This document shows positions 495 through 26,206 of a stretch of 64,000 nt of DNA, one piece after another. Within the stretch, counting starts at the first letter, position 1, and the number at the start of each line of letters is the position of its first letter. The position numbers and the translations under genes were made by a program. Under the pieces are notes generated by a model. That model ran no database searches. It had not been told where the DNA came from and saw only the letters and a program-made list of their open reading frames with translations. The DNA is from Lunularia cruciata (taxonomy: Eukaryota > Streptophyta > Marchantiopsida > Lunulariales > Lunulariaceae), in NCBI GenBank assembly GCA_948567375.1, contig OX419761.1:19382243-19446242 (forward strand), given 5' to 3'.

Positions 495-735
495 CATAAT
501 CAAACCTTCTTTGGTACAAATAGTATTGGTGCTCCCTAAAAGGATTTACTATATTGTATGAAATCATTCTCAAAAAACTTGGTCAATGTTATTTGAAGCT
601 CTTTTAACTCCCGTGGTGAAGGCAAATAGATTGATCTACTCATTGGAGTACTACTTAGCAATAGCTTGATCTTGAAAGGCATACCTTGATTAGAGTGTAA
701 CCCCTTTAGAAGATGTCACGCCATTAGTAATGTTG
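495..735 (-). pseudogene. Chromovirus fragment: start of reverse transcriptase
   Basis: The sequence is a diverged copy of 8120-8345, the stretch that encodes the linker and first part of reverse transcriptase in the chromovirus at 5073-10063. Shared blocks include TTCTTTGGTACAAATAG and the stretch that ends in GGAGTACTAC. It abuts LTR A at 488, so LTR A appears to have inserted into an older gypsy remnant. No frame is open across it. Confidence 0.55.
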
Positions 736-737
736 CA

Positions 738-1180
738 TCTAGATTGTTTGGACACTAGAGTTGCAGTGATAGTAGTTAGAGGCATCTTAGCAGTTACTCA
801 TAGACTACTTTTAGACTGTCATATTTTGTGTTTGGGATATTGACTTCATGGTGGAGCCCATTGTCACTTTGCACTGTTTGCACCGTTGGGTATGCCATCA
901 GTGGGACCGTTAGGGTTTGAGACCTAGCTTGAGTCCAAGGGGTATACTTTCAAAGTGAAGCTCCAGAGAGCTCACTTCTCTAATGTTGAGCCTTCAAGTT
1001 CTTGGCTATGGTGGATAGAGGCCAGTGAACGTTACCTGGATTCCCTTAGCTAGAATGGATGTGACTTCACTATAATCAATGCCCAATTATTGGTAGTTTA
1101 TAGAATGATAGATCAAGTACTAATTTGAGTTGAGTTGATTTGAGTGGTATAAACAAACTGATTACATCAAAGAAGTGAGG
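738..1180 (+). repeat. Interspersed repeat B, copy 1 (probable LTR)
   Basis: This segment is repeated at 13847-14290 and, more diverged, at 25770-26206. Shared blocks include GAGAGCTCACTTC, TCTTAGCTAGA and GTTGGTAG. Copies 1 and 2 bracket the plus-strand gag and methyltransferase remnants, which is what a pair of LTRs would do. I could not fix TG/CA termini or a target duplication, so LTR identity is an inference. Confidence 0.5.
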
Positions 1181-2229
1181 TAAGGGGAAATTGAGTGCAA
1201 GAACTGAGAGTGTTGGTGGTATCTCCAAGACTTGCTGATTGTTGGTAGCTCGATCGGAGTTCAAGTTTTCCCTAGTGTGCAGACGCTCATTTGGTTGATG
1301 TAGGTTTGGTAGTGAAGCGGTGTGTGGAAGCACTAGCCAAATTTTGAGCAAAGAGAAGCACTTTTTGAGTAGTGGTTGTGATTTTGAGCTCAAGAGGTGA
1401 AAGTAGGACCAATTTGTTGCGAGTTGGGCTTAGAAAGTGAAATTGAAAGTGGAACCTATCCTCGTGAATTTGTGATTTGGAAAAACCCATCATTTCAATT
1501 TGGCCCAAGTGAAGAGTTAGTGGAGGATTTGGCAATCATCCAACTTTAGGGTTTATGTCAGATTTTATATCAGATTTGGTGTCAGATTTGGAGGAGTTTT
1601 GGCCAGAGTTGGTGGAGTTTGGCTAGATTAAGACATATGACTATGGACATTGTTTGAAAAAATCTGCCCATCTAGCTAGATTGTGCACAATAGGGTTTGA
1701 TCCCTAGATCTCTAGTTCCTAGATTGGTGCCTTAGCCAAGTGGTCCACCCTCACTTGTTGTCCTAGTGATTGGCCCACTATTATTTATACACTTATAGCT
1801 TTGGCTAGAGAGGTAGTTTGATCCCATTCTTGGTGATCCTAGTAGCTTAGGATGTAGATAGGAACTCCTATTATGTCAAATGCCAAATGGTGATAGAGTC
1901 AATCCCATGTTGCTTTATGAGATGAAGGGTTTTTGTTTAGATTTCTTGTGATTGGACCCCCTCCATTCTCTACTTCTTGTTTGTGCACCATGTTTGTGTG
2001 AGGTGCACTAAATTTAGAACGTTGGTGCTCTAGTGTGCTCTTGGTGAGGCTAGAGTGATGACCATCTAGACTACCTTTGTTTCTCTCCGATGAGGTAGGA
2101 AGTGATGACCTGTAGACCGTGAGAGTGCGTGTGATGGTAGGGTATAGGTTGCACTTTCTCCTAGTGTATTTTTCATAGTTAGAGCTACATTAGTTGGTGA
2201 CGTTTAGTTGGTGGTGTTGGCACTTGCGG
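1181..2229. other. Leader-like stretch without a recognisable gene
   Basis: No frame stays open and I recognise no domain. The position between repeat B and the first gag-like frames suggests the untranslated leader of the plus-strand element. Several short direct repeats such as CAGATTTGG (about 1560-1590) are present. Confidence 0.3.
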
Positions 2230-4440
2230 TTTGCAGTTTGCAATTGGTGGTTTGCAGTTGGCGGTTTGTGGTTATTTTGTCACAATGGAGTTCTTTGGAG
2301 ATTCCAAAGGAGATAGCCTTGCACTACCCAATGGGTTTACTCAAAGTGGCACTCGGTATCAGCTTGTATTTCAAATCCTATTGAGGGAGGAGATTGACTC
2401 TCAGTTGGAGTTTGAAACATGAGCTAATTCAATTGAGAGTGCACTTGGTGTGTCCGTACCATTGTTGTGGGACATTGAACAGATTTATGGGGCTTCCAAA
2501 GGCCTTAGACTCTAGTATAGTGAGCACCATTGAGTTGGATGACTTCATCCAAGAGTTTGATAGTTGGTTTGATCTGTAGTAGATTCTGAACTTGACTTTG
2601 TTCACACCTTTCATGGCATGGAAGGGCTTGTTTCAACATCTGGAGGGTACATTGATGGACAACTACCATGAGTTCAGGAGAGCTCACTTGGAGGAGATTG
2701 AGCTATGGAGATAATATTGCTCTCTAAACTATGTCTCTATTACTTCAAGCTTAGTTTCTAGGGGTAGATTGGTTGTACCCACGAGTTCTAGCTCAAGTAG
2801 CATTGGTGGAGCTAGTGGAGGTGCATTAGTTGGAGATAATGCTACTACAAGTGGAGGTACCACTACAAGAGGTGGTGTAATACCAAGGTTTAACCCCATG
2901 GTGGAGTTCTTCTAGTGTTTGAGGCATACCTACCAAGGAGTACAGACTAACAAGGTGAGGAGCTTGCAAGAGTTCCAATGGAAGGCTAGAGAGAGCCTAT
3001 GCAAGGCATATACTAGCATGAGACAACTGATCAGGTTTACTCAGGGACTTATTGAGGCCCAAGCAGTCTAGTTTTGGTATGGGATATTATACAGGAAGTT
3101 GAGACATAGAGTTTGTGATGCTACATTGCTACAAGCTACTTTGCCCACTTTGGCAGTGGTCTTTGGTTTGGCTGAGCGTATTGAGCTCAACATGGTGGAG
3201 GAGAGAGTGGTGACATCTGGATTTGGTAGGGAGACCTCATCCACAATTGTGACTTCTTTTAGAGTGCAATAGAGTGCACCACGCCCAATTGATTTTCAAG
3301 GATAGGGTGGACAGCCTAGGTCCTATGGAGTGAGTGGAGAACCTACTATAGTTAGACCCTTACCTTCATTTTTGGGTCAACAATAGCTAGTGAATAGTGG
3401 TGTTGCTTGGTAGACTTGTGGTGGACCTCATCATAGGAAAGAGTGCCCTTAGGCAACAACTTGATACCTCTGGTGCATCACAACCAACATAGAGGTAGTG
3501 TAAGCATTACCACAGATTTGGTCACACTAGTGATTGGTGCTTTGACCTACACCCGGAGTTACAGAGTGGTAGGGCTACTATAGTAGGTGGTAGAGGAGCT
3601 CCAAGTCATAGAGGACGAGGTGGTAGAGGATCCACACCTAGTAGAGGTGCAATACCTGCCCTTACTTTTGTCACAGCCATGACTACTTGCATTGAGCAAT
3701 TGGAGTAGAGATTGGCTAGCATGGCCATAGCTCAAAGGAGGTCAGATTCAGGTGATGAGGCTTCCACCTCATATGCTAGTGATAGAGATGCCTTGGATTT
3801 CATGTGCGGAGCAACACAAGTAGATCCCTTTGCCACAATGACTAGGAGTGCAGTATGTGCTCAAGAGTCTAGAGAAGCATCAGTGGAGTTGGACCCACAG
3901 AGAGGAGAGGTTGGGAGACAAGTTAGACTTCCTCAGTCTTTCACGCTCTCTAAGGCCCTACATACATCATCCATGACTCTTAAATGTCCTAGTGCAAGTG
4001 TGGTAGGTGGTGATGGGATGCATGATGGACTACCTACTAGTCAACCATCTACTACTACAAAGATTGAGTCTAGCATGATGTTGTGAGTGGCTCAATTGAT
4101 TATGCACTATCCTTTATTTTCAGCCAATGACATGTGTACATTGGAAGTTGACCCAACCCTAGTGTTCTGGTTGGCTGCCAAGCTTTGTGAGGGTAGGGAT
4201 GATGTGGTCCATACTACTAGAGTAGAGGTGGTTGAAAGTGGAGTTGACTCGGTTGAGGAGCATGGGATTTGCTCAACGACTAGTGGTTTGTGGCAAGCAA
4301 TAGCGGCTAGATTGGAGGAGTTACCAACTAGACCAGCCTTTGAGCAAGCACGGTTTATACCTAGTGTTGTCCTATTGGATAACCAAAAGGGGATTTTTTG
4401 TTTGGTGAGACCTTCAAGGAAGGTCTATACACCACCCTAG
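2230..4440 (+). pseudogene. Gag-like polyprotein of the plus-strand methyltransferase-bearing retroelement
   Basis: Plus-strand frames interrupted by stops encode a retrotransposon capsid-like region. Around 2940-3210 the translation reads LQEFQWKARESL and ends in AERIELNMVEERV, a pattern I recall from gag proteins of plant Ty3/gypsy elements. Two zinc-knuckle relics follow. One is TCGGPHHRKEC near 3414-3450. The other is CKHYHRFGHTSDWC near 3499-3541, where the second cysteine has become tyrosine. A GRGGRG-rich basic stretch follows near 3590-3640. From 3712 to 4440 one frame is open except for a TGA at 4084. Several stops are TAG where Gln or Trp is expected, consistent with C-to-T decay. 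The element continues directly into the retropepsin at 4440. The exact gag start is not determinable. Confidence 0.65.
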
Positions 4441-4646
4441 CTTAGCATATCATCTTACTTGACTATGGTGCATAGCTCCTTTTGTTGGGGAAGGCTACAA
4501 TTGTCGGTTTGGAGTTACGGAAGACCGATGTGGAGAGGTGTCCATTTCAGATCCAAACATCTCTAGGTGGTGGTTTGACACAATACATCACATGTTGTCA
4601 TAGGGAAAATAATCTACGTGAACCATTGGTGCATTTGGTGGGAGAG
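4440..4646 (+). pseudogene. Retropepsin-like protease, 5' half (continues at 12804)
   Basis: The frame reads LDYGA at 4458-4472, where a retropepsin has D-S/T-G-A, so the middle residue is mutated. It continues LLLLGKATIVGLELRK, then VERCPFQIQTSLGG. This resembles aspartic protease domains of plant and algal Ty3/gypsy elements. The domain stops abruptly at 4646. Its continuation (VRAQAIATIVESYDVLVGG) is found at 12804, after the inserted purine-rich element. The junction motif TTGGTGGGAGAG (4635-4646) is repeated as TTGGTGGTGAGAG at 12795-12807, consistent with a target duplication. Confidence 0.65.
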
Positions 4647-5072
4647 TTTTGTTGACTTTTCATTATAGTGACTTTGGCATTTTGTTATGTTATTGTATCT
4701 TGGGAATATTTTTCATGCCATTGTTAAGTCGGAAGCTATCGTGTGTTGCGATAAGCTTGGGGAAGTTTCAAGGGTTGAGTAAACTCAGAAGTCCTTTTAT
4801 GTTTCAAGAGCTCAGAGGGTTTGAAAAATGATGCATAAGCTCGGGAGTTTCTTTGTGCTACACAAACTCAGGGCTTAAATATATGTTACACAAGCTCAGG
4901 ATTTTGTTTATGCTACTAAATTTTGGGAGTATTTCAATTTAGCGCCATTTGAACAAATAAGTCTTGTGAGAGTTTTTCATTTAGTAATGTTGAGCAAAAG
5001 GCTTTAGAGAGTTTATTTGGAACACTTTGAGCAAAAGAGTTGTTTGGGATTTTCCATGTTGAGTAGTGACAA

Positions 5073-5496
5073 TGTAAAAGACCAAAATCGAGGAGAGAAA
5101 TAGGAGAATGGAAACTCACATTGGGACACTTGAATGAGGGAAAAACTCCGAATGCCTAGCATGAGCTTTGGCTTTGGTATTTATAGGTAGCATACAAGAC
5201 CCTTGAAGCTTCTCAAGAAGCTTCCTTGAGCCGCTTTCTTGGAGTGCAAGCCAAGTTAACTAGGAAGCTTCTCAAGAAGCTTCCTTCTAGAAGCCACCTA
5301 CTTGGCGTGCAAGCTAAGCTAGTTAGAAGCTTCTAGAAGCTTCCTTCTAGAAACTACCTGCTTAGGGCACAAGTTAACTAGTTGGGAAGCTTCCCAAGAA
5401 GCTTCTTAGATGCTTCTAGAATATTCTATGCTATTTTGTCTTATTCTCTACTTCATAAGCCCGACTAACTTCGTTGTTAAACTCCATATTGTTATA
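5073..5496 (-). repeat. 3' LTR of chromovirus 1
   Basis: This is 424 bp and starts TGTAAAAGACC on the plus strand. It ends TGTTATA where sister copies end TGTTACA, so the terminal CA has mutated. In the minus orientation the order is U3 with GAAGCTTC palindromes, a TATA box (CTATAAATA, 5178-5186), then R and U5. Heat-shock-type blocks lie at 5326-5343 and 5414-5426. Confidence 0.9.
5178..5426 (-). promoter_or_regulatory. 3' LTR copy of the TATA and heat-shock element block
   Basis: The same arrangement as in the 5' LTR is seen here. TATA is at 5178-5186, the four-unit GAA/TTC block at 5326-5343, and the three-unit block at 5414-5426. Transcription from here would run out of the element toward lower coordinates. 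Confidence 0.55.
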
Positions 5497-5513
5497 TATT
5501 CCCCCGCCGCTAG
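5497..5513 (-). promoter_or_regulatory. Polypurine tract of chromovirus 1
   Basis: On the minus strand the bases just upstream of the 3' LTR read GGCGGGGGAATA, a purine run in the place expected for the plus-strand primer. One C interrupts it. Confidence 0.45.
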
Positions 5514-6830
5514 TTGGTGACGTTCTTGTCGCCAGTGAAGCTTCGAATTCCTTGATGGCCATTTGTGCACTTTGGAGGTGGGAAAGAGGTTCCCATATGG
5601 CATTGTGAAGGGGATACCCTTTCCAAAGGACCTTGTACTCCGTATGTTGGCGATGGCCTCGTTGAATATGACAACGTGCAAGGATACGATCAACTTTGTA
5701 CTCCTCATGATCATTGATAGGGACAGGCAAAGGAGGAGGTTGGACTCGAGAGGAAAAGGAAGAGGGGTTAGGAACAAATGGTTTCAACTTGGAAACATGA
5801 AAGACAGGATGGATATGCATGTGATAAGGCAAGGCAAGTCGATAAGCAACAGGATAGACAATGTGGGTGATATCAAAGGGTCCTATCCAATTAGGAGCAA
5901 GTTTACGAACTTGGGTATCAAGTGGGAGAGGGAGGTTACTAGAGGATAACATGACTTTATTGCCAACTTCAAAGGTGAGATCACGACAATGGTGATCCGC
6001 ATATTGTTTTTGGCGATTCTGAGCAACAAGGAGGTGAGACTTGGCTTGTTGGAGAGATTGGGATATAGTGGTCAAGAATGTGGAAGTATGAGAAACCTGA
6101 GAGGGAGGGGGAGCAAGAAGAGAATCTAGAACAAGCGGATCTTGGCCAAAATTGAGAAAGAAGGGAGAAAATCCGGTGCTTGCCTGTTTGGAATTGTTGT
6201 AGGCAAATTCTGCAGCTGCAAGACATTCATCCCAGTTGGTATGGTGGACATTGACAAAGGCCCGCAACATATCCTCCAATGTATGATTGGCGCGTTTGGT
6301 TTGTCCATCAGTTTGAGGATGATAGGCCGTGGACAAAGCAAGCTTGGTGCCAAGTATCTGGAAGAGTGCTTGCCAAAACTTTCTTGTAAATCAAGGATCA
6401 CGGTCGGAGATGAGTACACATGGCATCCCATGATGCTTGAAGACATTGTCAAAGTAGATTTGTGCTAAGGTTGGAGCATCCACGGTATTACAGGTTGGTG
6501 CCAAGTGGATTTGCTTACTAAGCTTATCCACAAACACCGCGATTGCGGTGTGTCCTTGTTTTGTCTTTGGCAAGGATGTGATGAGATCCAAGCTCACATG
6601 CTCCCAACAAGCGGATGGAATGGCGAGTGGTTGAAGGAGTCCACTTGGCTTCTGGTTGCTGGCCTTGTTCCGTTGGCAACTCTCACATGATCGGACAAAG
6701 TCTCAAACATCTTGTGTCATGTTGGGCCACCACCATTGGCGTTGGAGGGTGCCCAAGGTCTTGTCTACTCCCATGTGACCAGCTATTGGTAAATCATGGG
6801 CTTCTTGAAGGCGCACAAGTCAAAGATCAC
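5514..6830 (-). pseudogene. Chromovirus 1 integrase with C-terminal chromodomain
   Basis: In transcription order the N-terminal zinc-binding part is visible near 6830-6680 (a GHMG-type histidine region, then CESCQRNK). The DDE core follows, with LDLITSLP (first Asp, about 6590), SDRDP (second Asp, about 6395) and HPQTDGQT then NHTLED (Glu, about 6285). The C-terminus has the GPF/Y-like WIGPFDI and a chromodomain (YKVDRIL, YKVLWKGYP, WEPLSHL) near 5700-5540. This is the hallmark of chromoviruses, whose integrase is thought to read chromatin marks. A TGA directly after SDRDP, where CGA (Arg) is usual, breaks the frame. The long frame at 5431-6336 runs past the coding end into the LTR. Confidence 0.85.
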
Positions 6831-7129
6831 CTTTGGCTAGAACATAGATCTGGTCTACATGGAATAAAAGGTCTTCCTTGAAGGAGAAGGTGTTGTACTC
6901 CTTGTCGCATGCTGTTAGACAACCGTGTACCATTTGGAAGAAAGGATCTCATTGTAGAGCTGATTGAAACTCATTATGAACCTTAGGGTCAATGGACACC
7001 ATTGTAATTGCTGCCGTGATGAGAGGAAGAGCCTTCAAATCAGGTTGTTGTGATAGAGCATCAGGGATGACATGGAACCGACCTGGTTTGTACTCAAGTT
7101 TGATGTCAAACAATTGGAGTTGCTCTTCT

Positions 7130-8310
7130 CATCAATGATGCCGACTCTTCATGTGCTCCAAGTGCTTACAATGGCTTGTGATCAGTTTGCATGATCACTT
7201 GTTTCCCCAAGAGATAATGCCTCCATACCTTGGTGGCATATACCATTGCAAGTTGTTCTCGATCTCGAGCAGAGTAATTTCTTTCAGCTGTATTTAGTCG
7301 GCAAGACACAAAGGCAATAGGATGTTGTCCATTTGGAAATTCTTGTTGTAACACAGCTCCAATCGCAAAGTTAGAAGCATCAAAATCAACCACACAAGGT
7401 AGTTGAGGATCATATGGTTGAAGAATGGGTCTTGAAGACACCATATGCTTTAACTTCTGGAATGCTTCTTCATGCTTGGTGGTCCAGTGGAAGCTTGAGT
7501 TCTTTCCCAAGAGGTCAGTCAATGGTGCAGCCACGTGAGCATAATAGTGGATGGACCGTCAGTAAAAACTGGCCAATCCATTGAATGCTTGTACTATTGT
7601 AGCATCCTTTGGGGTAGGCCAATCAGTAATGGCCTTGATCTTCTCTTCTTCCATCTTGATCCCCTCAGATGAGATCTTATGACCCAAGAAGGTAACCTTC
7701 TTTTGCCAAAAAGCACACTTTGACTTCTTGCAGTAAAATTTCCACTGTCGTAGTCGTCTTAGGACTTCTCGCACATGATTCATGTGTTCTGCCTCTGTCC
7801 TACTATAGATTAAGATATCATCTAAGAACACCACCACGGACCGATCCAATAATCCCTCCAACACCCGATGCATTTGATCCATGAAGACTGCTGGAGTCCG
7901 AAAGGTAGAACTCTCCACTCAAAATGTCCATACCTTGTGCAAAAAGCAGTCTTTTGCACGTCCTTGCCTTCAATAGGAATTTGCCAATAGCCGCTACAAA
8001 GATCTAGCTTGGAAAAGTAGCGTGCTCCACTTAGTTGATCAAGCAGGTCATTGATCCGAGGCAAGGGATATGCATTCTTCATGGTTTGCTTATTGAGTCC
8101 ACGGTAATCAATACAGAAACAAAGTCTTCCATCCTTCTTTGGAACAAATAGTAGCGGTGCTCCCCAAGGAGAGGTACTATGTTGTATGAAATCCTTCTCC
8201 AACAACTCTATAAGTGTTGTTTGCAACTCCTCCAACTCCTTTGGTGAGAGCCGATAGATTGGTCTACTCACTGGAGTACTCCATGGCAATAACTTGACCT
8301 TGAAGGGCAT
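7130..8310 (-). pseudogene. Chromovirus 1 reverse transcriptase and RNase H
   Basis: RT motifs in order are [10 protein letters not shown] (about 8150), [32 protein letters not shown] (about 8010), RVLPFGL and [11 protein letters not shown] (about 7830-7800, the catalytic DD box). RNase H shows DFDASNFAIGAVLQQ (about 7385), the block SARDREQLAM (Glu) and QTDHKPL. Between PFGL and VFMDQMH about 10 nt present in the sister copy at 20550-20580 are missing, between two CTC triplets, so the frame shifts within RT. The protein could not be made as one piece. Confidence 0.88.
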
Positions 8311-8313
8311 ACC

Positions 8314-9108
8314 TCAATTGGAGGGTAATCCCTTTGGCAGATCATCCGGAAACACATCTGCAAACTCCTGAACTATCCGATCAACCATTGCTTGATGCGG
8401 CACTTGGCCCTCCTCAGATTGTTCTTGTGCAATCGGCTTGATCCACATCGCAAATACAGATTTATCTTCCTCCAAAGCTTGCTCTATGGCTGCTTCATTA
8501 ACAAACTTCCCTTCTAGGGACTCATCTCTCTTCCAAGCTTGCTCCATGGTTGCCTTCTTGGCAAACTTCCCATCTTGGGACTCATCTCCCTTCCAGATTT
8601 GCTCTATGGCTACCTTCTCGACAAACTTCCCATCTTGGGATTGACTATTCTTAGGTGTCTTACTCAGAGGTGCCAGACAACCTAATTGGAAATTCATACC
8701 TTGGTGTTGTACTTGAATTTGGTGTCGGGTCCAATCAAATTGAACCTTATGACATTCAAGCCAAGGTAGACTCAGAATGATATCATAGTGTAGAGGTGCC
8801 ACTACAAATCTCATACACTCTAAATACTCCTTCCCAATCTTGAAGGTAACAGGATGCAAGGTGCGGAATGCAGAACCCTTTCTACCATCCGCCATCATCA
8901 AACTACTTCCAATCATTGGCTTGATAGGAATACCCAATTCCTTTGCTACTTGCATAGACATGCAATTCTCTGAACTTCCAAAATCAACCAAAATTCTACA
9001 ACCCCGATCAGATATCATACCTTGCAAGTGAAGCAGACTTGCATAGGTTGAGCCTTCAATCCCATTGGAACTAATCAAGCTCCCAGTAGGTGGCTCAAAA
9101 TCTCCCAT
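8314..9108 (-). pseudogene. Chromovirus 1 retropepsin and linker to RT
   Basis: A frame of 264 codons is open. Near residue 40 it reads ILVDFGSSENCM, where chromoviruses have VDSGSSHNF or similar, so the active-site D-S-G has become D-F-G. The flap region and PWLECHKVQFDW follow. Residues 155-215 contain three near repeats of a 24-residue acidic unit (ESQDGKFVEKVAIEQ and variants). The sister copies at 21022-21276 and 48724-48918 share this repeat, so it is an old family trait. The frame ends two codons before the RT frame. Confidence 0.8.
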
Positions 9109-9109
9109 T

Positions 9110-9626
9110 GGGATTCCTTGTTTCCCGGATCATTCCGCTCCACAACCTCCACTTGGGCAACTTGTCAAGGTCGTCCATTCTTGAGTGGACATTCAGCAAT
9201 GCAATGCCCCAACTGGCAACAATAAAAACAACCTCCATTTTGTTGTAATCTTTCTCTATCTACTGTGCCAAGTGGTCTTTGTTGGATAGCATCAATCTCC
9301 ATTGGTATTGGTTCTTCCACTCGTGGTACTGGTAGGCTTTGTGTAGGTCAAGGTCAAGACCAAGTTGTCGCAACCAAGGAATCAAAATGCTCAGCCAAGT
9401 GCATGGCTTCTTCTATGTTTTGTGGCTCCCGCATGGTCACCTCCAATTTGGTTCGTGACTTCAACCCTCGCACAAATCGATCTAGAACTTCACCTTCTTG
9501 GATATCTGGAATTTGCAAGGTGATGAATTGTATGAAACGATGCTTTGGAAATATCTAGACATGAAAGTCCCAATGGTTTGGCGGAAGTGGATTTGGTGGT
9601 CCATAAATTCGATCCATCCCATTCCT
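9110..9626 (-). pseudogene. Chromovirus 1 gag remnant with zinc knuckle
   Basis: A CCHC zinc knuckle reads CFYCCQLGHCIAEC near 9190-9235 on the minus strand. Upstream a short capsid remnant is interrupted by stops. Compared with 21780-22940 in chromovirus 2, the stretch between about 9519 and 9525 lacks around 640 bp. The part of capsid encoded there is gone, so this copy could not have made a normal Gag. Confidence 0.75.
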
Positions 9627-9638
9627 GCTCTGATACCA
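9627..9638 (-). promoter_or_regulatory. Primer binding site for initiator tRNA-Met
   Basis: On the minus strand, just inside the 5' LTR, the sequence is TGGTATCAGAGC. This is the usual complement of the 3' end of plant initiator tRNA-Met and is the standard minus-strand primer site in many LTR retrotransposons. Confidence 0.9.
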
Positions 9639-9639
9639 A

Positions 9640-10063
9640 TGTAAAAGACCAAAACCAAGGAGAGAAATAGGAGAATGGAAACTCATATTGGGACACTTGA
9701 ATGAGGGAAAAACTCCGAATGCCTAGCATGAGCTTTGGCTTTGGTATTTATAGGTAGCATACAAGACCCTTGAAGCTTCTCAAGAAGCTTCCTTGAGCCG
9801 CCTTCTTGGAGTGCAAGCCAAGTTAACTAGGAAGCTTCTCAAGAAGCTTCCTTCTAGAAGCCGTCTACTTGGCATGCAAGCTAAGCTAGTTAGAAGCTTC
9901 TAGAAGCTTCCTTCTAGAAGCTACATGCTTAGAGCGCAAGTTAACTAGTTGGGAAGCTTCCCAAGAAGCTTCTTAGATGCTTCTAGAATATTCTATGCTA
10001 TTTTGTCTTATTCTCTACTTTGTAAGCCCGACTAACTTCATCGCTAAACTCCATATTGTTATA
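9640..10063 (-). repeat. 5' LTR of chromovirus 1
   Basis: This is 424 bp and collinear with 5073-5496. As the upstream LTR for minus-strand transcription it would have driven the element. The primer binding site follows immediately at 9627-9638. Confidence 0.9.
9745..9993 (-). promoter_or_regulatory. LTR promoter: TATA box with upstream heat-shock elements
   Basis: On the minus strand a CTATAAATA box lies at 9745-9753. Upstream of it are several GAAGCTTC palindromes. Two blocks fit the heat-shock element rule of alternating GAA and TTC every 5 bp. One is GAAGCTTCTAGAAGCTTC at 9893-9910 (four units). The other is TTCTAGAATATTC at 9981-9993 (three units). This order, with HSEs in U3 upstream of TATA, is that of a heat-inducible promoter. 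Function is inferred. Confidence 0.6.
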
Positions 10064-10310
10064 GACAAAGTGGCCTAAGAAGGTTTTTTTTGAGTGGACC
10101 GAGAAGGAGAAAAAATGCCTTGAAAGGGTTTGGTGATTTTGGATAGGAAGACAGAGAGGGAGGGAATGAAATTTGAGGGTTTTGGGGTTGGACAAGAGGA
10201 AGAGCTCAGGAGGAAATTTTTGAAGTTGGGGCTAAGGGTGTTCAGAGGATAGTGGGGGAGAAGTGGTTGCAGAGGAGTAAACTTTTGAGTGAGAGGGGTC
10301 TGAGCAAGAG

Positions 10311-11308
10311 AGAAGGCAAGTAAGTTCTCCCACAGGAATGAAGGAGTTAGCAAGCTTGGACAAGAGTGAAATTTTGAGTTGGATAGGAAGGTTGTGTAGG
10401 AGAGAAGGCAAGTAGGGTTTTCCCATAGGAATGGAGGAGTGCAAGCTTGGATAGGAGTGAATTTTTGAGTTAGAGAGGTCTGAGCAAGAGAGAAGGCAAG
10501 TAAGTTCTCCTGCAGGAAGGAAGGAGTTAGCAAGCTTTGACAAGAGTGAAATTTCAAGTTGGACAGGAGTGTTGTGCTATAGAGAAGGCAAGTAAGTTCT
10601 CCCATAGGAATGAAGGAGTTAGCAAGCTTGGACAAGAGTGAAATTTTGAGTTGGATAGGAAGGTTGTGTAGGAGAGAAGGCAAGTAGGGTTTTCCCATAG
10701 GAATGAAGGAGTGCAAGCTTGGACAAGAGTGAATTTTTGAGTTAGAGAGGTCTGAGCAGGAGAGAAGGCAAGTAAGTTCTCCCGTAGGAAGGAAGGAGTT
10801 AGTAAGCTTGGACAAGAGTGAAATTTTGAGTTGGACAGGAGGGTTGTGCTGTAGAGAAGGCAAGTAAGTTCTCCCGTAGGAATGAAGGAGTTAGCAAGCT
10901 TGGACAAGAGTGAAATTTTGAGTTGGATAGGAGGGCTGTGTAGGAGAGAAGGCAAGTAGGGTTTTCTCGTAGGAATGGAGGAGTGCAAGCTTGGACAGGA
11001 GTGGATTTTTGAGTTATAGAGGTCTGAGCAGGAGAGAAGGCAAGTAGGTTCTCCCATACGAATGAAGGAGTGCAAGCTTGGACAAGGGAAGAGAAAAATT
11101 TTGAGTTAGAGAGGTTTATGTAAGAGAGAAGGCAAGTAGGGTTTTCCTACAGGAATGGAGGAGTGCAAGCTTGGACAGGAGTGAATTTTTGAGTTAGAGA
11201 GGAGTGACCAGTGGAGGAGAAAAGGCAATAAGTTCTCCTGTAGGAATGGAGGAGTGTAGGAATGGAGGAGTGCAAGCTTGGACAGGGGTGAAATTTTCAA
11301 CGGAAAGG
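10311..11308. repeat. Higher-order minisatellite, trimer period 272 bp
   Basis: The landmark AGAAGGCAAG recurs at 10311, 10403, 10491, 10583, 10675, 10763, 10855, 10947, 11035, 11127 and, mutated, near 11218. Spacings are 92, 88, 92 and then repeat. Units of type A (AGTAAGTTCTCC) alternate with a shorter type B (AGTAGGGTTTTCC) in the order A-B-A'. The array is therefore a 272-bp higher-order repeat of about 3.5 copies. A separate duplication of period about 95 bp follows at 11341-11530. The plus strand is strongly purine-rich. Long minus-strand frames here are by-products of the repeat. Confidence 0.88.
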
Positions 11309-11530
11309 AGACTTGAGCTGTGCAAGAGCTGAAGGGTATGGACAAAGGAAATCAAAAGGAAGGACATTGAGGGGAGGGCTGAAAAGGAGAAATTTCAAAG
11401 GAAGAGACCTAGCTATACATGAGCTGGAGAGGATGGACAGAGGAAATCAAAAGGAAGGACATTGAGAGAAGGGCTGAAAAGGAGAAAATTCAAAGGAAGA
11501 GACCTGGCTATGCAAGAGCTGGAGAGTATG

Positions 11531-12794
11531 GACAGAGAAGTGAGAAGTGAAGGAATTTTTGAGAGATTTAGCACTGGACAGAGAAGTGAGAAAGGGAAGG
11601 AATTTTTAAGAGATTTTGCACTAGGATAGAGGGGAAGGGGTTCAGGTTTCAGAAGTTTAGTCAGGAGAGAATGAGATGAACTTTGAGAGGATAGGGTTTT
11701 ACAGGATAAGGACTGTGCTTTGAAGGAAAAACTATGACTGATCAAGAGACACCCAAGAGAAACTTTCAAGTTTGTTGTGAAGGTTTGAGAGTGAACCAAG
11801 AGAGGCAAGAAGGAGGAGTTTCAGAATTTTGTTGTGAAGGTTTGAGAGTGAGCTAAGAGAGATAGACAAAGAGGAATTTTTGAGCTTTACAATGAGAGCC
11901 AAGAGAGCTGGAGACAACAGAGCAGTTCTCGAAGGTTGGGGAATGGCTGATGCTGGGCAGAAGATATAGAGGCCATTCTCTTGAAGGTGATGTGAAGGTC
12001 TGATGCTGAAGTGACAGGGCAGAGAGAAGAGAAGGAGAGGCTTCGAATGCTGAGTGATGAGTGACAGTTTGATAAAAGAGAAGGAGTTGAGAAGATTGTC
12101 TGCATGTGATTGGGTGAGTTTGGATGTTCAGCTGGAATGTCTTGGTTGCCCAAGTGATAAAGTAGGAATGGTCACTCCATATGAAAGAGTTGTTTGTCTT
12201 GTTTGACTTATAGTTGTATGACTGGTTGAAGAGGATGATTCATGAACGGATAAATGTACTCTGAATTATGGATGTTGTCAAGAGAAGGGTTGCATTTAGG
12301 AGCTCTTGGTCCAGTCTATATGATTGCATAGTTCAGTGATCGATACATCCGGGTTTGACCACCATTAGTTGCTTGTGGTTATTTCACAAATTCTCACCAG
12401 AGCCGTCTTAGAAACCTGTCTGAGCCAAGAGCCAAACCCACAGACCTGAACATAAAAGAGAACTAGAAGCAAAACTATATAGGAGTAGAGCTACAAGGCC
12501 AAACACAGCCAAACACAATTGAACACTATAAATCAACTTTAGGCTACAAAATCCAACATACAAACCCTAGAAGAAACCTACCCTGGGACAATCAAAACAA
12601 CCTGACCTATTGGAAAGAGCTGCAAGCCATACCAAAAAAGGAAGAGAATGGCAAACCTTGGGAAGACTCAAGTCATTGAACCAATTGCAACTAAGCACAA
12701 GCAGCCAAGTGCCCGATGCACTCTCAAGGACAAAACTCCATGACAACATGGAGAGCTTGTTGTCTAGGTTCAGCCTGGTCATTCAATTGATAGC
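11531..12794. other. Purine-rich tail and 3' end of insertion M1
   Basis: The G and A bias on the plus strand continues to about 12160. From about 12295 it gives way to a block shared with 37260-37630. Within it GTCTATATGA could be a TATA-like signal, but I cannot show a promoter. No protein is recognisable. Confidence 0.4.
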
Positions 12795-12803
12795 TTGGTG
12801 GTG

Positions 12804-13846
12804 AGAGCTCAGGCCATTGCGACCATAGTTGAGTCATATGATGTGTTAGTTGGGGGAGCAGTGTTATACCCCAAGGGTTTCAGTATTGACTATTAGGAGG
12901 AGACAACCTCCTATAGACCAAGTTGGCAGTCTAGTGAGGGACAAGTATGTCGCCTACCAATATGCTTTAGTAGTGGCAATCTTGGCTCACTACAGTCCAA
13001 GACCATGACAACATCAGTTTCAACTTATAGTGGTGCTATTACTTGGCTTGGTGATTTATTGGAGTGGAATGCCCATGCAAAGGATACTTCAGTACCAGAG
13101 GAGATCACTCGGATTTGGAGTATGAGTGGGATTTTTTCATCCACCTTGGATGTTCCATTGTGGATTTTGGAGGATGCATTGCAGCAACATGCAGATTGGT
13201 TGGTGCAATAGGCTTGGAGTGGAGCCTTTGTACCACTAGGAGATGAGTGTGAGGATGAGCCTCTAGAGTCAATTACCTTGACACCTTTGGATAACACACT
13301 CGTTGCTTGGCAATATTCAATAGAGGGAGTATGTCTATTGGAGTCGTTAGATGGGACTAGCACCAGACTAGTTGTGGTACAACATGCAGGTATACAAGTA
13401 CATAAGTTCATGTATGTGGAGAGAGATGAGACTGCTAGGTGAGTCTCGTTACATCATATGGCACACTTGGCTTATTGGTATCCTAAGATATTACCAATGT
13501 CAACAATTATGGGTTACCCCATGAATACACATTTCCTTGCTAGGGGCGCATGACTTGTAGAGACATGGTCCCATTCACTTGGTGATTTCTAGATAGTCAT
13601 GTCAAGGACATACACATGTTGGTTGAGGTTTGGGTCTTTAGGATCCCTGTTTTGGTGTGTTTTGGGAGATGTTACAAATACTACAATATCTCCAAGTTCA
13701 TCAATCTATTTCTCCAACTTACATTTTGGAGAACATCCCCTTGATAGGTGATTCTTGCACTATGGTGGTGGCAAGTACACATTAGGTCCATTCTTGGATA
13801 GGACCTACGGTACTATTAGATGATCATTGCAGTACTATTAGATGCT
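12804..13846 (+). pseudogene. Retropepsin 3' end followed by a C5 cytosine DNA methyltransferase domain
   Basis: One frame runs from 12804 to 13551 with in-frame stops (TAG 12894, TAG 13209, TGA 13440). It opens with ESYDVLVGGAVLYPKGF, the continuation of the retropepsin at 4440-4646. Then come methyltransferase-like motifs. VCLLESLDGTSTRL (13329-13370) is a decayed motif I (E-x-F-x-G-x-G-x-x-L type). HKFMYVERDETAR near 13401-13439 fits motif II. After a frame change at about 13549, HLVISR*SCQG (13576-13608) is motif IV, with the catalytic Cys codon at 13600-13602 and Pro mutated to Ser. YILENIPLIGD (13720-13752) is motif VI (E-N-V/I). SWIGPTVLLDD near 13788-13823 fits motif VIII. The target-recognition part and motifs IX-X are absent because repeat B begins at 13847. 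No RT or integrase follows. C5 methyltransferases transfer methyl from S-adenosylmethionine to cytosine. Confidence 0.72.
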
Positions 13847-14290
13847 ATCTAGATTGCTCAAACACTAGAGTTGCAATGATAGTGGTTAGAGGTATTTTAG
13901 CAATTACTTGTAGACTACTTTTCAACGGTCAAATTTCATGTTTGGAGTATTGACTTCATGGTGGAGCCCATTGTCACTTTGCACCATTTGCACCATTAGG
14001 TGTGCCATCAACGGGACCGTTATGGTTTGAGACCTAGCTCAAGTCCAAGGGGTATACTTTTGAATTGCAGCTCTAGAGAGCTCACTTCTTTGACGTTGAG
14101 CTTTTGAGTTCCAGGCTATAGCAGACAGAGGCCAGTAAGCATCACCTAGATTCTCTTAGCTAGAGTGTGTGCGGCTTCAATGTAATCAGTGCCCAATTGT
14201 TGGTAGTTTATAGAGTGACAAATCAAATACTGATTTGAGTTGAGTTCATTTGAGTGGTGTAAATACAATAATTATTGTAGCACTTTAGAG
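13847..14290 (+). repeat. Interspersed repeat B, copy 2 (probable LTR)
   Basis: It is collinear with 738-1180, sharing blocks such as GGTGGAGCCCATTGTCACTT, and lies directly after the methyltransferase remnant. It is the natural candidate for the other LTR of the plus-strand element, although termini are not resolved. Confidence 0.5.
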
Positions 14291-14389
14291 TCTATGTATG
14301 ACTTATGTGTGATTTATGTGTCTATAGTAGTGTATGATGTTGATAGCAATGTATGCTATGTAGCAATGTATATATGCACAACAAAGATC

Positions 14390-18179: not shown

Positions 18180-21100
18180 TAGTTGGTGATGTCCTCATTT
18201 CCATTGAAACTTCAAGCTCCTAGATGGCAGTTTGTGCATTCTGGAGATGAGAAAGAGGTTCCTATGTGACATCATGAAGGGGATACTCTTTCCAAAGGAC
18301 CTTGTACTCCGTATGTTGTCAGTGGCCTTGTTGAATGTGGCAAGGCACAAGGATACGATCAACTTTCATACTCCTCATGATCACTAATAGGGATAGGAGG
18401 AAGAAGAAGAGGTTGGACACAAGAGATAGGTTAAGAAGATAGGTTAGGAACAAAGGGTTTCAACTTGGAAACATGAAAGACAAGGTGGATGCACATATGA
18501 CAAGGCAAGGCAAGTCAATAAGCAACAAGAGAGATGATTTGGGTGATATCAAAGGATCCTATCTAATTAGGGTAAGTTTATGAACTTGGGTATGAAGTGG
18601 GAAGGGTAGGTTACAAGAGGAGAGCATGATCATTGACTTGAAAGGTGAGATCACGATGATGGTGGTCTGCATATTGTTTCCGTCAATTTTGAGCAACAAG
18701 GAAATGAGATTTGGCTTCTTGGAGGGATTGGGGTATGGTGGTCAAGAAGGCGGAAGTATGAGGATAATGAGATGGAGGAGGAGCAAGAAGGGAATTTGAA
18801 ACAAGTAGATCTTGGCCAAAATTGAGGAAGAAAGGAGAGAATCTGGTGCTTGCATGTTTGGAATTATTGTATGCAAACTCCATAGTTGTAAGACATTCAT
18901 CTCAATTAGCATGGTGGATATTGACAAAGGCACAAAGCATATCCTCCAAGGAGAAATTTGCATATTCAATTTGTCCATCAATTTGAGGATGATAGGTTGT
19001 GGAAAAAGCAAGCTTGGTGCCGAGTATCTAGAAAAGTGCTAACCAAAATTCTCAAATGAATCAAGGATCATAGTTGAAGATGAGTACACAAGACATCCCT
19101 TGATGCTTGAAGACATTGTCAAAGTAGATCTACACCAATGTTGGAGCATCCATGGCATCAAAGGTTGGTGCCAAATGGGTTTGCTTACTAAGCTTATCCA
19201 CAGACACCACAATTGTTGTGTGACCTTGCTTCATCTTGGGTAAGGACATGATGAGATCCAAGCTCATGTGTTCCTGTCAAGCATATGGAATGGGGAGTGG
19301 TTGAAGGAGTCCACTCAGTTTTTGGTTGTTGGCCTTGTTGTGCTAGCAACTCTCACATAATCACAAAAACTCTTGAACACCTTGTGTCATGTTGGGCCAC
19401 CACTATTGGCATTAGAGAGTATCCAAGGTCTTGTCTCCATCCATGTGACCAACTACTTGTAAGTCATGGGCTTCTAAGAGGCACAAAAGTTGAAGATCAC
19501 CCTTGGTTGGAACATAAATCCGGTTCTCACAAAATAGAAGGCCTTCCTTGAAGGAGAAGGTGTTGTACTCCTTGTTGCATGTTGCAAGACAACCTTGTAC
19601 CATCTCAAAGAAAGAATCTTGATGTAAAGTGGTCTTAAACTCAAGCTGGACTTTGGAGTTAATTGATACCGTCATAATTGCCACCGTAATGAGAGAAAGA
19701 GACTTCAAATCAGGTCATTGTTATAGGGCATCAAGAATGATATGAAATAGATTGGCTTTGTATTCAAGTTTGATGTCAAAAATTTTTAGTTGTTCCTCCC
19801 ATTGACAATGTTGACTCTTCATGTGTTCTAAGTGTAATGTCTACAACAAAGGTTTGTGATCAATTCATATGATCACTTTTTTCCATAAGAGATAATGCCT
19901 CCATATCTTGGTTTCATAAACCATTGTTGATTGTTCCTAATCTTAAGTAGAGTCATTCCTTTTTGCTGTATTTAGTCTATGAGACAAAAAGGAAATGGGA
20001 TGTAACCTATATGGGAATTCTTGTTGCAACATGGCTCCAATTACAAAGTTAGAAGCATCAAAATCAACCACACAAGGTAGTTGAGGATCATATGGTTGAA
20101 GAATGGGTCTTGAAGACACCATATGTTTCAGTTTCTAGAATGCTTCTTTGTGCTTGTTGGTCCACTAAAAGCTTGAGTTCTTCTCCAAGAGATTGGTCAA
20201 TGTTGTGGCTACATGAATATAGTAGTCGGTAAAAACTAGCCAATCCATTAAATGCCCATACTTTTGTAGTATCCTTTGGAGTAGACCAATCAATGATGGC
20301 CTTGATTTTCTCCTCTTCCATCTTGATCTCCTCCAATGAGATCTTATGACCCAAGAAGGTAACTTCCTTCTACCAAAAGAAGGCACACTTTGACTTCTTG
20401 TAGTAAAAATCCCATTGTTGTAATCATTGTAGGACTTGTCGCGCATGATTTATATGTTCTTCCTTTGTCTTGCTATAGATTAAAATGTCATCCAAGAACA
20501 CCACCATGTACTGATCCAATAGTCAATCCAACACCCTATGCATCTGATCCATGAAGACTACTTGAGCATTAATGAGCACAAAAGATATAATTCTCCATTC
20601 AAAATGCCAATACATTGTGCAAAAGGCAATCTTTTGCACATCCTCTCCATCAATGGGAATTTGCCAATAGCCATTGCAAAGATCCAACTTGAAAAATTAT
20701 CATGCTCCACTCAATTGATCAAGCAAGGCATCAATTCAAGGCAAGGGATATGCATTCTTCACTATTTTTTTATTGAGCCCATGGTAATCAATACAAAAAT
20801 GAAGTCTTCCATCCTTCTTTGGAACAAATAATACTGGTGCTCCCGAAGGAGATATACTATGTCATATGAAATCCTTCTCCAACAACTCCATAATGGTTGT
20901 TTGCAACTCCTCCAACTCCTTTGGTGAGAGCCGATACATTGGTCTACTCATTGGAGTACTCCTTGGCAATAACTCAATCTTGAAGGGCATACCATGATCG
21001 GAGGGTAATTTCTTTGGCAGATCATTTGGAAATACATCTGAAAACTCTTGGGACTATTTGATCAACTATTGCTTGATGAGGTTTTTGATCCTCCTTAGAT

Positions 21101-25520: not shown

Positions 25521-25769
25521 TAACATAGTTTGTTTGTTTTGAACAAAACAACCACATGATCATTTTCTTGATTGTCTAACAAGCAAGATCCTTCATGTTC
25601 TCAATCTTGTATCCATTTGTGGACTTCTCTTTGACAAACAAGTCATCAATTTGTCCCTTAAACCTTTTGATAAGATGACCATGTAGGGTATCTATATGAA
25701 TTTCCTTGAATGATGAGCAAACTACACCCAACATCTTGTCAAGCTATTATAGTGGCAAAGCTAGTTTGC

Positions 25770-26206
25770 TTGGATGTTGGAGTGGTAGTGTTGGCAATCA
25801 TAGTTATTTTGGTAGTTGCTCATGGACTACTTGATGGCGGCCACATTTCATGTTAGGGGCTAATGATCATATAGTGGGACCCACCATCACATGCACCATC
25901 CATATCATCAAATGTGCTATCAATGGTACTATTAAGGTTGGAGATCCATGTCAAACAAAGAAGTATACTTTCAAAGTGCAGCTCTAGAGAGCTCACTTCC
26001 TTGATGTTGAGCCTTTGAGTTCTTGGCTATGGTGGACAAAGGCCAATAAGAATCACTTGGAGTCTCTTAGCTAGAGTGGATGTGGCTTGTTTGTAATGAA
26101 TGCTTAATTGTTGGTAGACTTGTGAGTGGAGGATTGCATTCAGATCTGATCTGAGTGTGATTTGAGTAGAAGCGTGAACTGATTATATTAGAGAAGTGAG
26201 AGTTAG
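25770..26206 (+). repeat. Interspersed repeat B, copy 3
   Basis: It is diverged from 738-1180 and 13847-14290 but shares TATACTTTCAAAGTG, GAGAGCTCACTTCC and TCTTAGCTAGAGTG. No gag or methyltransferase flanks it, so it may be a solo LTR. LTR A begins directly after it. Confidence 0.5.

What the first reader, a model, noticed from the sequence alone, without database searches (positions are those of the whole stretch)
2230..13846. A retroelement carrying a C5 cytosine DNA methyltransferase domain
The plus-strand element has gag, a retropepsin (DYGA at 4461-4472), then motifs of a C5 methyltransferase: a decayed motif I (13329-13370), SCQG with the catalytic Cys at 13600-13602 (usual PCQG), ENI at 13729-13737 (usual ENV), and a motif VIII-like block. 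The retropepsin runs into the methyltransferase in a single frame (12804-13551). Retroelement-borne cytosine methyltransferases are known from some algae and protists. A copy in what looks like a seed-plant nuclear genome would be notable: an element able to methylate DNA in a host that silences elements by methylation.
Basis: partly seen in the sequence, partly recalled or inferred. Interest (0 to 1): 0.88.

Follow-up and report, generated by a model that had tools for sequence, protein, structure and literature searches.

The report
Liverwort retrotransposon carrying DNA methyltransferase gene
This stretch holds a decayed copy of a jumping gene from a liverwort-like plant; less damaged copies elsewhere in the same genome carry a complete-looking enzyme domain for adding methyl marks to DNA, the kind of mark plants normally use to silence such jumping genes.

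Summary
The core claim holds, at family level. The window copy (714-14383, 4-bp target duplication AAGA) is old, nested and internally deleted; Pfam alone finds nothing in the frames tried. But 12800-13822 matches 39 other scored places in the same genome at 84-85%, and stop-free copies encode gag, protease and a DNMT3-like C5 methyltransferase with motifs I, IV, VI, VIII, X in order, then UAG, then RT-RNase H-integrase and a PHD finger. The window keeps relics of motifs I, IV and VI (E 5e-103); motif VIII is deleted. The host is not a seed plant: relatives are in Marchantia, Riccia, Calypogeia, Sphagnum, Closterium and Klebsormidium; Lunularia is my guess from genome size. RT and methyltransferase trees suggest one green-lineage clade with two domain orders. 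Nearest described element: KnitGypsy-Dnmt3 of Klebsormidium (PMC5890265). My ten literature searches (open-licence PMC only) listed no land-plant description. The methyltransferase looks constrained (dN/dS 0.32, 7 copies), but activity is untested. Most likely mechanism, inferred: it is made with Gag-protease and methylates the element's cDNA or fresh insertion.

The parts
710..713 (.). left copy of the 4-bp target-site duplication (AAGA)
714..1163 (+). left terminal repeat A1, starting TGTCAC
   Evidence: blastn to A2 of copy L018 (82%); ends by comparison
1164..1870 (+). leader between A1 and the region matched by L018; not aligned separately
   Evidence: position only
2219..4434 (+). decayed gag (pieces 2219-2509, 2511-3446, 3463-4434) with stops and frame changes
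   Evidence: tblastn with ORF1 of L018, 63-78% identity
4452..4592 (+). first part of the retropepsin (LLDYGA)
   Evidence: tblastn 83%
4594..12745 (.). nested insertion (limits uncertain by a few bases; ACAT on both sides) that contains a minus-strand chromodomain Gypsy element with repeats at about 5070-5496 and 9637-10063
   Evidence: gap in the match to L018; repeats; Pfam protease, RVT_1, SH3_Tf2-1 and Chromo on the minus strand
12747..13019 (+). rest of the retropepsin and start of the linker
   Evidence: tblastn 80%
13026..13517 (+). linker and methyltransferase motif I relic (13329-13370)
   Evidence: tblastn 69.5%
13531..13821 (+). methyltransferase motif IV (SCQG, Cys codon 13600-13602) and motif VI (ENI 13729-13737) relics; ends just before motif VIII
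   Evidence: tblastn 74.2%; DNA match ends at 13822
13822..13846 (+). junction of a deletion of about 4.2 kb that removed motifs VIII-X, RT, RNase H, integrase, PHD, B1 and the first bases of A2
   Evidence: L018 match jumps from 5077 to 9272
13847..14383 (+). right terminal repeats A2 and B2 (B2 about 14274-14383)
   Evidence: blastn 82-85%; A1/A2 identity 83.2%
14384..14387 (.). right copy of the target-site duplication (AAGA)

Best explanation
The window holds a dead copy of a Ty3/Gypsy-type retrotransposon of a liverwort-like plant. Shown by sequence: less damaged copies encode ORF1 = gag, retropepsin and a DNMT3-like C5 methyltransferase, one UAG stop, and in the same frame ORF2 = RT, RNase H, DDE integrase and a C-terminal PHD finger; the ends are split direct repeats (A1 ... 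B1 A2 B2) with TG...CA termini and 4-bp target duplications. Inferred: the UAG with CAR-YYA behind it is read through at a low rate, so the methyltransferase is made at Gag level while RT and integrase come only with the read-through product; the enzyme methylates the new cDNA or the fresh insertion, and the PHD finger guides the integration complex by histone H3 tails, so that a new copy arrives already marked like host repeat DNA. My odds: identity 0.97, read-through 0.75, catalytic activity on DNA 0.6, self-methylation of cDNA or insert as the selected function 0.4. The confidence below is for the identity and layout together.
For: 39 other scored copies at 84-85%. Long stop-free ORFs with PF00145, RVT_1, RNase H, H2C2, rve and PHD. 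Motifs I, IV, VI, VIII, X in order; catalytic Cys in 20 of 20 near-full copies. DNMT3A best by sequence and by fold. TG...CA ends and perfect 4-bp duplications in 5 of 5 copies whose two ends were both recognised. UAG in 20 of 20 copies in which the place was found (26 loci examined), UAG-CAR-YYA in 19 of 20. dN/dS 0.32 over 7 stop-free copies. Long-term conservation: 57-67% identity to Marchantia proteins. C-to-T decay of the window at CG 35.4%, CHG 34.5%, CHH 7.7%.
Against: No activity data. In the 2018 yeast assay the Klebsormidium Gypsy enzyme gave no methylation (authors: inconclusive). The decay at CG/CHG sites is what host enzymes would also cause. The copies share recent ancestry, so the UAG context is not 19 independent cases, and one copy (L028) departs. 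dN/dS samples are small and chosen for lack of stops. The window frames give no Pfam hit. PF00145 covers only about 73 of 324 profile positions in intact copies. Other Gypsy elements thrive in this genome without a methyltransferase, as the nested chromodomain element in the window suggests.
Confidence: 0.9

Rival explanations
1. The methyltransferase fold is kept for something other than DNA methylation of the element: binding nucleic acid in the particle, or methylating RNA such as the genomic RNA or the primer tRNA.
For: The related Klebsormidium enzyme showed no DNA methylation in yeast (inconclusive); several algal relatives have ECQ in place of PCQ at motif IV, Closterium P0211 too.
Against: Cys of motif IV kept in 20 of 20 near-full copies; DNMT3-type fold; dinoflagellate DIRS enzymes of similar type methylate CG in yeast.
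Confidence: 0.25
2. The enzyme restrains the element or benefits the host: methylation of new copies lowers transposition, so that the host tolerates the family.
For: The window copy carries the decay expected of a methylated element; the authors of PMC5890265 raise this possibility.
Against: Copies with 98-99% A1/A2 identity point to recent activity; restraint is hard to select for at element level.
Confidence: 0.15
3. The enzyme is a recent capture of the host's own DNMT3.
For: The host genome has a DNMT3-like gene fragment that matches element enzymes (31% over 129 residues to P0021).
Against: 18 chosen element enzymes stand apart from host DNMT3 and DRM fragments (support 95, about 159 columns); the same element type is in Marchantia, Sphagnum and algae.
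Confidence: 0.03
4. Chance motifs in a decayed gag-pol, no methyltransferase at all.
For: No Pfam hit in the window frames at E<=1.
Against: E 5e-103 to a stop-free methyltransferase ORF of the same genome; shuffles reach 25 bits against 241; PF00145 over cut-off in four copies.
Confidence: 0.005

Closest known systems
KnitGypsy-Dnmt3 of Klebsormidium nitens (de Mendoza et al. 2018, PMC5890265; abstract, passages and sections 9, 10, 11 seen)
   Same: Gypsy domains with a DNMT3-type enzyme; terminal repeats described as DIRS-like; Klebsormidium RT proteins fall in the same RT clade here.
   Different: Here the enzyme sits in ORF1 behind gag and protease and before a UAG; the paper's text puts it in the Pol ORF. 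PHD finger, UAG context and 4-bp duplications are not in the passages that I read. None of the Klebsormidium proteins retrieved carried an enzyme match, so direct comparison of the enzymes was not possible.
SymbioDIRS-Dnmt3 and SymbioLINE-Dnmt of Symbiodinium (same paper)
   Same: Retroelement-borne cytosine methyltransferases; the DIRS ones methylate CG in yeast.
   Different: Other retroelement classes; not compared by sequence here.
DNMT3A/DNMT3B catalytic domain
   Different: Carried by a mobile element; no other chromatin domain found by Pfam in the ORF1 proteins scanned; the PHD finger is in ORF2.
Chromodomain Gypsy elements (chromoviruses), one of which is nested in the window
   Same: Gypsy domain order and a chromatin-reading domain behind the integrase.
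   Different: A PHD finger instead of a chromodomain, a methyltransferase, and split repeats.

Membership tests
Ty3/Gypsy retrotransposons | Order RT - RNase H - integrase, after gag and protease | tested here: met
   (gag itself only weak: Retrotrans_gag E 0.07)
Ty3/Gypsy retrotransposons | TG...CA ends and short target duplication made by a DDE integrase | tested here: met
   5 of 5 copies with both ends recognised; a sixth (L021 copy) had no recognisable right end
Ty3/Gypsy retrotransposons | Two plain direct LTRs | tested here: not met
   Split repeats A1 ... B1 A2 B2; so Gypsy-type by proteins, unusual by ends
DIRS-type elements | Tyrosine recombinase and no target duplication (recalled) | tested here: not met
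   rve integrase and 4-bp duplications
DIRS-type elements | Split direct repeats (recalled) | tested here: met
DNMT3-type C5 methyltransferase | Motifs I, IV (PCQ), VI (ENV), VIII, X in order | tested here: met
   stop-free copies; not met in the window copy, which lacks VIII-X
DNMT3-type C5 methyltransferase | Closer to DNMT3 than to other C5 methyltransferases | tested here: met
   (DNMT3A 2.4e-7, HhaI about 0.01, DRM2 0.095); no full tree with host enzymes
DNMT3-type C5 methyltransferase | Methylates DNA | not testable with these tools
   none
KnitGypsy-Dnmt3 | Same RT lineage | tested here: met
   three Klebsormidium RTs lie in the enzyme-bearing clade (support 100) and in the sub-branch with liverwort and Closterium rows (81)
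KnitGypsy-Dnmt3 | Same methyltransferase lineage | not tested
   no Klebsormidium enzyme among the proteins retrieved
Read-through stop of UAG-CAR-YYA type (recalled) | UAG followed by CAR-YYA, open frame after it | tested here: met
   19 of 20 copies (L028 has CAG-CTT); same frame
Read-through stop of UAG-CAR-YYA type (recalled) | Used in cells | not testable with these tools
   first ORF2 Met is at residue 48 in the three copies looked at, so a separate start is not excluded

The most novel reading that the evidence does not exclude
One very old lineage of Gypsy-type elements with split repeats has carried its own DNMT3-like methyltransferase together with a PHD histone reader through the green lineage (chlorophytes, charophytes, mosses, liverworts), with an ancient relocation of the enzyme within the polyprotein; in land plants the enzyme sits in the Gag-protease ORF ahead of a read-through stop, so that every particle carries many copies and pre-marks its cDNA. 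Such elements may have taken part in the Gypsy bursts of the larger liverwort genome.
Probability: 0.35. Interest if true: 0.85.

Novelty: new variant of a known kind. Interest (0 to 1): 0.7.

Why it matters
Retroelements that encode the mark used to silence them are a paradox described, as far as my searches show, only from algae. Finding the family in land plants, including Marchantia polymorpha (a genetic model, with copies such as Mp_4g09160 listed as hypothetical proteins), makes the question of what the enzyme is for directly testable. The wide distribution would turn a curiosity of a few algae into an old lineage, and the PHD finger, split repeats and UAG layout give concrete hypotheses on targeting, replication and dosage. 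DNMT3 gene counts of bryophyte genomes may include such copies.

Tried and rejected
Pfam on window frames (12701-13990 and 2230-5070, three frames each, stops as X): 0 families at E<=1; not taken as a negative because other copies settle the matter. Seed-plant host: rejected (closest named proteins from Marchantia, Riccia and Calypogeia; DNMT3-like fragment; tRNA-Arg(CCG) beside plastid rbcL, whose meaning is recalled). Chance motifs: rejected. Recent host capture: disfavoured, weakly tested (fragments only). A genome-wide copy count by pattern did not complete; the first-look numbers 11207 and 2161 are not counts. The AlphaFold model has mean pLDDT 51.7; only the methyltransferase core (blocks mostly 70-90, the loop after motif IV under 50) was interpreted. 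No Klebsormidium methyltransferase was named; only RT or integrase proteins came up. Pfam at E<=0.001 gave no PF00145 in the Sphagnum (P0023), Klebsormidium (P0192) and Cymbomonas (P0116) proteins and a sub-threshold one in Monoraphidium (P0082, 20.9 against 22 bits); for Sphagnum, Cymbomonas and Monoraphidium the enzyme rests on my own profile and on pairwise matches. The Tetrabaena enzyme match covers only 36 positions. One hit is labelled a bacterial MAG (P0111), which I take for mislabelled algal DNA.

Literature: 10 of 10 searches used (two were for the host). Open-licence PMC only, so a description elsewhere may exist. PMC12344493 (passages) says that some DNMT3 members sit in retrotransposons (it names LTR Copia and DIRS) of streptophytes and dinoflagellates, citing the 2018 paper. 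PMC6453930 and PMC6338049 (passages) held nothing on liverwort elements.

Rows dropped: enzyme tree 125 of 141 proteins (single match, at least 290 positions), then 52 of these chosen by me; RT tree 56 of 257 chosen by me; host-enzyme tree 18 of 257 element enzymes chosen by me; dN/dS only stop-free copies with at least 93% coverage; UAG context 20 of 26 loci, the rest not matched by the anchors.
Full report
What is in the window. Pfam finds no family in the six window frames tried at E<=1, so the window alone would not carry the claim. The window's own genome (566 Mb, 74 contigs) does. DNA 12800-13990 matches 40 scored places (of 11207 first-look candidates): the window itself and 39 others at 84-85% identity over about 12800-13822. 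The DNA_methylase family PF00145 matches 123 scored places (of 2161 candidates), most over profile positions about 48-120. Both lists are capped and are lower bounds.

Anatomy. blastn of L018 on the window and later checks give: A1 714-1163, leader, gag 2219-4434, protease start 4452-4592, nested insertion about 4594-12745, protease end and linker 12747-13019, linker and motif I 13026-13517, motifs IV and VI 13531-13821, then a jump of about 4.2 kb to A2-B2 at 13847-14383. Motifs VIII-X, RT, integrase and PHD are gone from this copy. The tblastn match of the stop-free methyltransferase region has E 5e-103; its best piece scores 241 bits against at most 25 in 100 block shuffles. The nested insertion carries a minus-strand Gypsy element with protease, RT, Tf2-1-type SH3 and chromodomain pieces.

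Ends and integration. Copies start TGTCAC and end CGACA (CAACA in the window and one other). Both ends were recognised in five copies (window AAGA, L018 TAGC, L020 CATA, L017/L022 ACTC, L019/L025/L026 ATGG), and all five have perfect 4-bp duplications; a sixth (L021/L023/L024) had no recognisable right end. The repeats are split: A1 at the left; B1, A2, B2 at the right. B1 ends and A2 starts two bases apart (GACA-GC-TGTC), and a run of G stands before B1. Such a layout is that of DIRS-type elements (recalled), and the 2018 paper says the same of the Klebsormidium element, yet integrase and duplications are those of integrase-using elements.

Expression signal. ORF1 ends in UAG in 20 of 20 copies in which the place was found (26 loci examined), ORF2 follows in the same frame, and 19 of 20 read UAG-CAR-YYA in four forms; L028 differs. 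That this is the read-through motif known from tobamoviruses is recalled. The copies are kin, so these are not independent cases. The first Met of ORF2 is at residue 48 in the three copies looked at. If the stop is read through, the enzyme is made with every Gag-protease, RT and integrase only in the minority product.

Age, constraint, decay. A1/A2 identity: L020 98.7%, L021 copy 98.7%, L017 98.0%, L030 97.8% (277 bases), L019 copy 94.9%, window 83.2%. Pooled dN/dS of stop-free copies: gag 0.24 (4 copies), protease and linker 0.43 (9), methyltransferase 0.32 (7), RT-RNase H 0.42 (4), integrase 0.62 (2), PHD end 0.67 (10). Samples are small, and the choice of stop-free copies lowers the values. 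Against the other copies (10 for the gag part, 22 for the methyltransferase part) the window has C-to-T changes at 35.4% of 147 CG, 34.5% of 354 CHG and 7.7% of 1114 CHH sites, as expected of an element once methylated at CG and CHG. Host enzymes suffice to explain this.

Distribution. The first search (methyltransferase region of P0001) found 40 proteins among 7991 scored candidates: 14 labelled Marchantia polymorpha at 57-67% identity, one Sphagnum fallax protein at 46%, the rest metagenomic or unnamed. The second, from an unnamed metagenome relative (P0024), found 112 among 3139, with Monoraphidium neglectum and Cymbomonas tetramitiformis named. The third, from RT-integrase-PHD, found 489 among 7993 (120 listed), with Calypogeia fissa, Riccia sorocarpa, Closterium, Klebsormidium nitens, Tetrabaena socialis and Marchantia named, and an animal element far down. 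With my own profiles, of the first 141 proteins 88 have RT-MT-IN with or without PHD, 9 have MT before RT, 23 show MT only, 21 other partial combinations; of 116 further proteins 86 show RT-IN with or without PHD and no MT, many probably ORF2 proteins like P0002. Closterium P0211 has MT-RT-IN in one protein and ECQ at motif IV. Pfam does not confirm PF00145 in the Sphagnum, Cymbomonas and Klebsormidium proteins and is just under the cut-off for Monoraphidium.

Trees. The enzyme tree (52 chosen rows, quick method) has one branch with all enzyme-before-RT rows but P0039 and P0042 (16 rows, SH-aLRT 95, two of them of unknown order) and one with all RT-before-enzyme rows (34 rows, 87). The RT tree (56 chosen rows) puts all 24 enzyme-bearing rows, with 21 rows in which no enzyme was seen, in one clade against 11 ordinary Gypsy rows (support 100); the 15 RT-before-enzyme rows are one group (99); Klebsormidium, Closterium and liverwort rows join with 81. 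Loss of the enzyme and its placing in a separate ORF cannot be told apart in rows without one. Transfer between lineages is not excluded. Host DNMT3 and DRM fragments stand apart from 18 element enzymes (95, about 159 columns).

Host. Eight contigs of 60-85 Mb make up about 558 of 566 Mb. rbcL lies intact on a 112.5-kb contig, with tRNA-Arg(CCG) beside it. The genome has a DNMT3-like fragment and, by my own reading, DRM- and CMT-like ones. Lunularia cruciata, about 580 Mb and described with bursts of Ty3/Gypsy elements (PMC9985172, passages and section 11), fits best; Blasia pusilla at 377-390 Mb does not (PMC13182070, passages). This is inference, about 0.75.

Comparison and novelty. The nearest described element is KnitGypsy-Dnmt3 (PMC5890265, sections 9, 10, 11 and passages). 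In ten searches I found no report from a land plant, of the PHD finger, of the UAG layout or of the green-wide clade; the library holds open-licence papers only, and I saw most hits as listings. I therefore call it a new variant of a known kind. In the 2018 work the Klebsormidium enzyme showed no activity in yeast, judged inconclusive by its authors, while dinoflagellate DIRS enzymes methylated CG.

Mechanism. Shown: protein parts and order, ends, duplications, UAG context, recent copies. Inferred: read-through, packaging of the enzyme with Gag, methylation of cDNA or fresh insert, guidance by the PHD finger. The advantage may be passing as host repeat DNA, protection of cDNA, or restraint; I favour the first two together at 0.4.

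Noticed in passing
window 4594-12745: Two-level nest: a minus-strand chromodomain Gypsy element (repeats 96% alike, about 5070-5496 and 9637-10063) inside a further insertion with ends TGTTGTCAT...ATGACA and no terminal repeats found.
   Followed up: partly
window 10301-11296: Tandem repeat of about 272 bases (four copies, 64-100% to the first) in the outer part of that nest.
   Followed up: no
window 25767-26170: A further 71% relic of the A repeat of this family.
   Followed up: no
window 18809-20945 and 45698-46187: RT/integrase relics of other Gypsy elements (21-32% to this family's ORF2, minus strand).
   Followed up: no
metagenome relatives P0026-P0032, P0036; Closterium P0211: Motif IV reads ECQ instead of PCQ in many algal relatives, Cys kept.
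   Followed up: no
P0003, P0004 and 12 further Marchantia proteins; Sphagnum P0023: Bryophyte copies stand in public databases as hypothetical proteins, so counts of DNMT genes there may include mobile elements.
   Followed up: no
P0111: A polyprotein of this family is labelled as from a Minisyncoccia MAG, probably mis-binned eukaryotic DNA.
   Followed up: no
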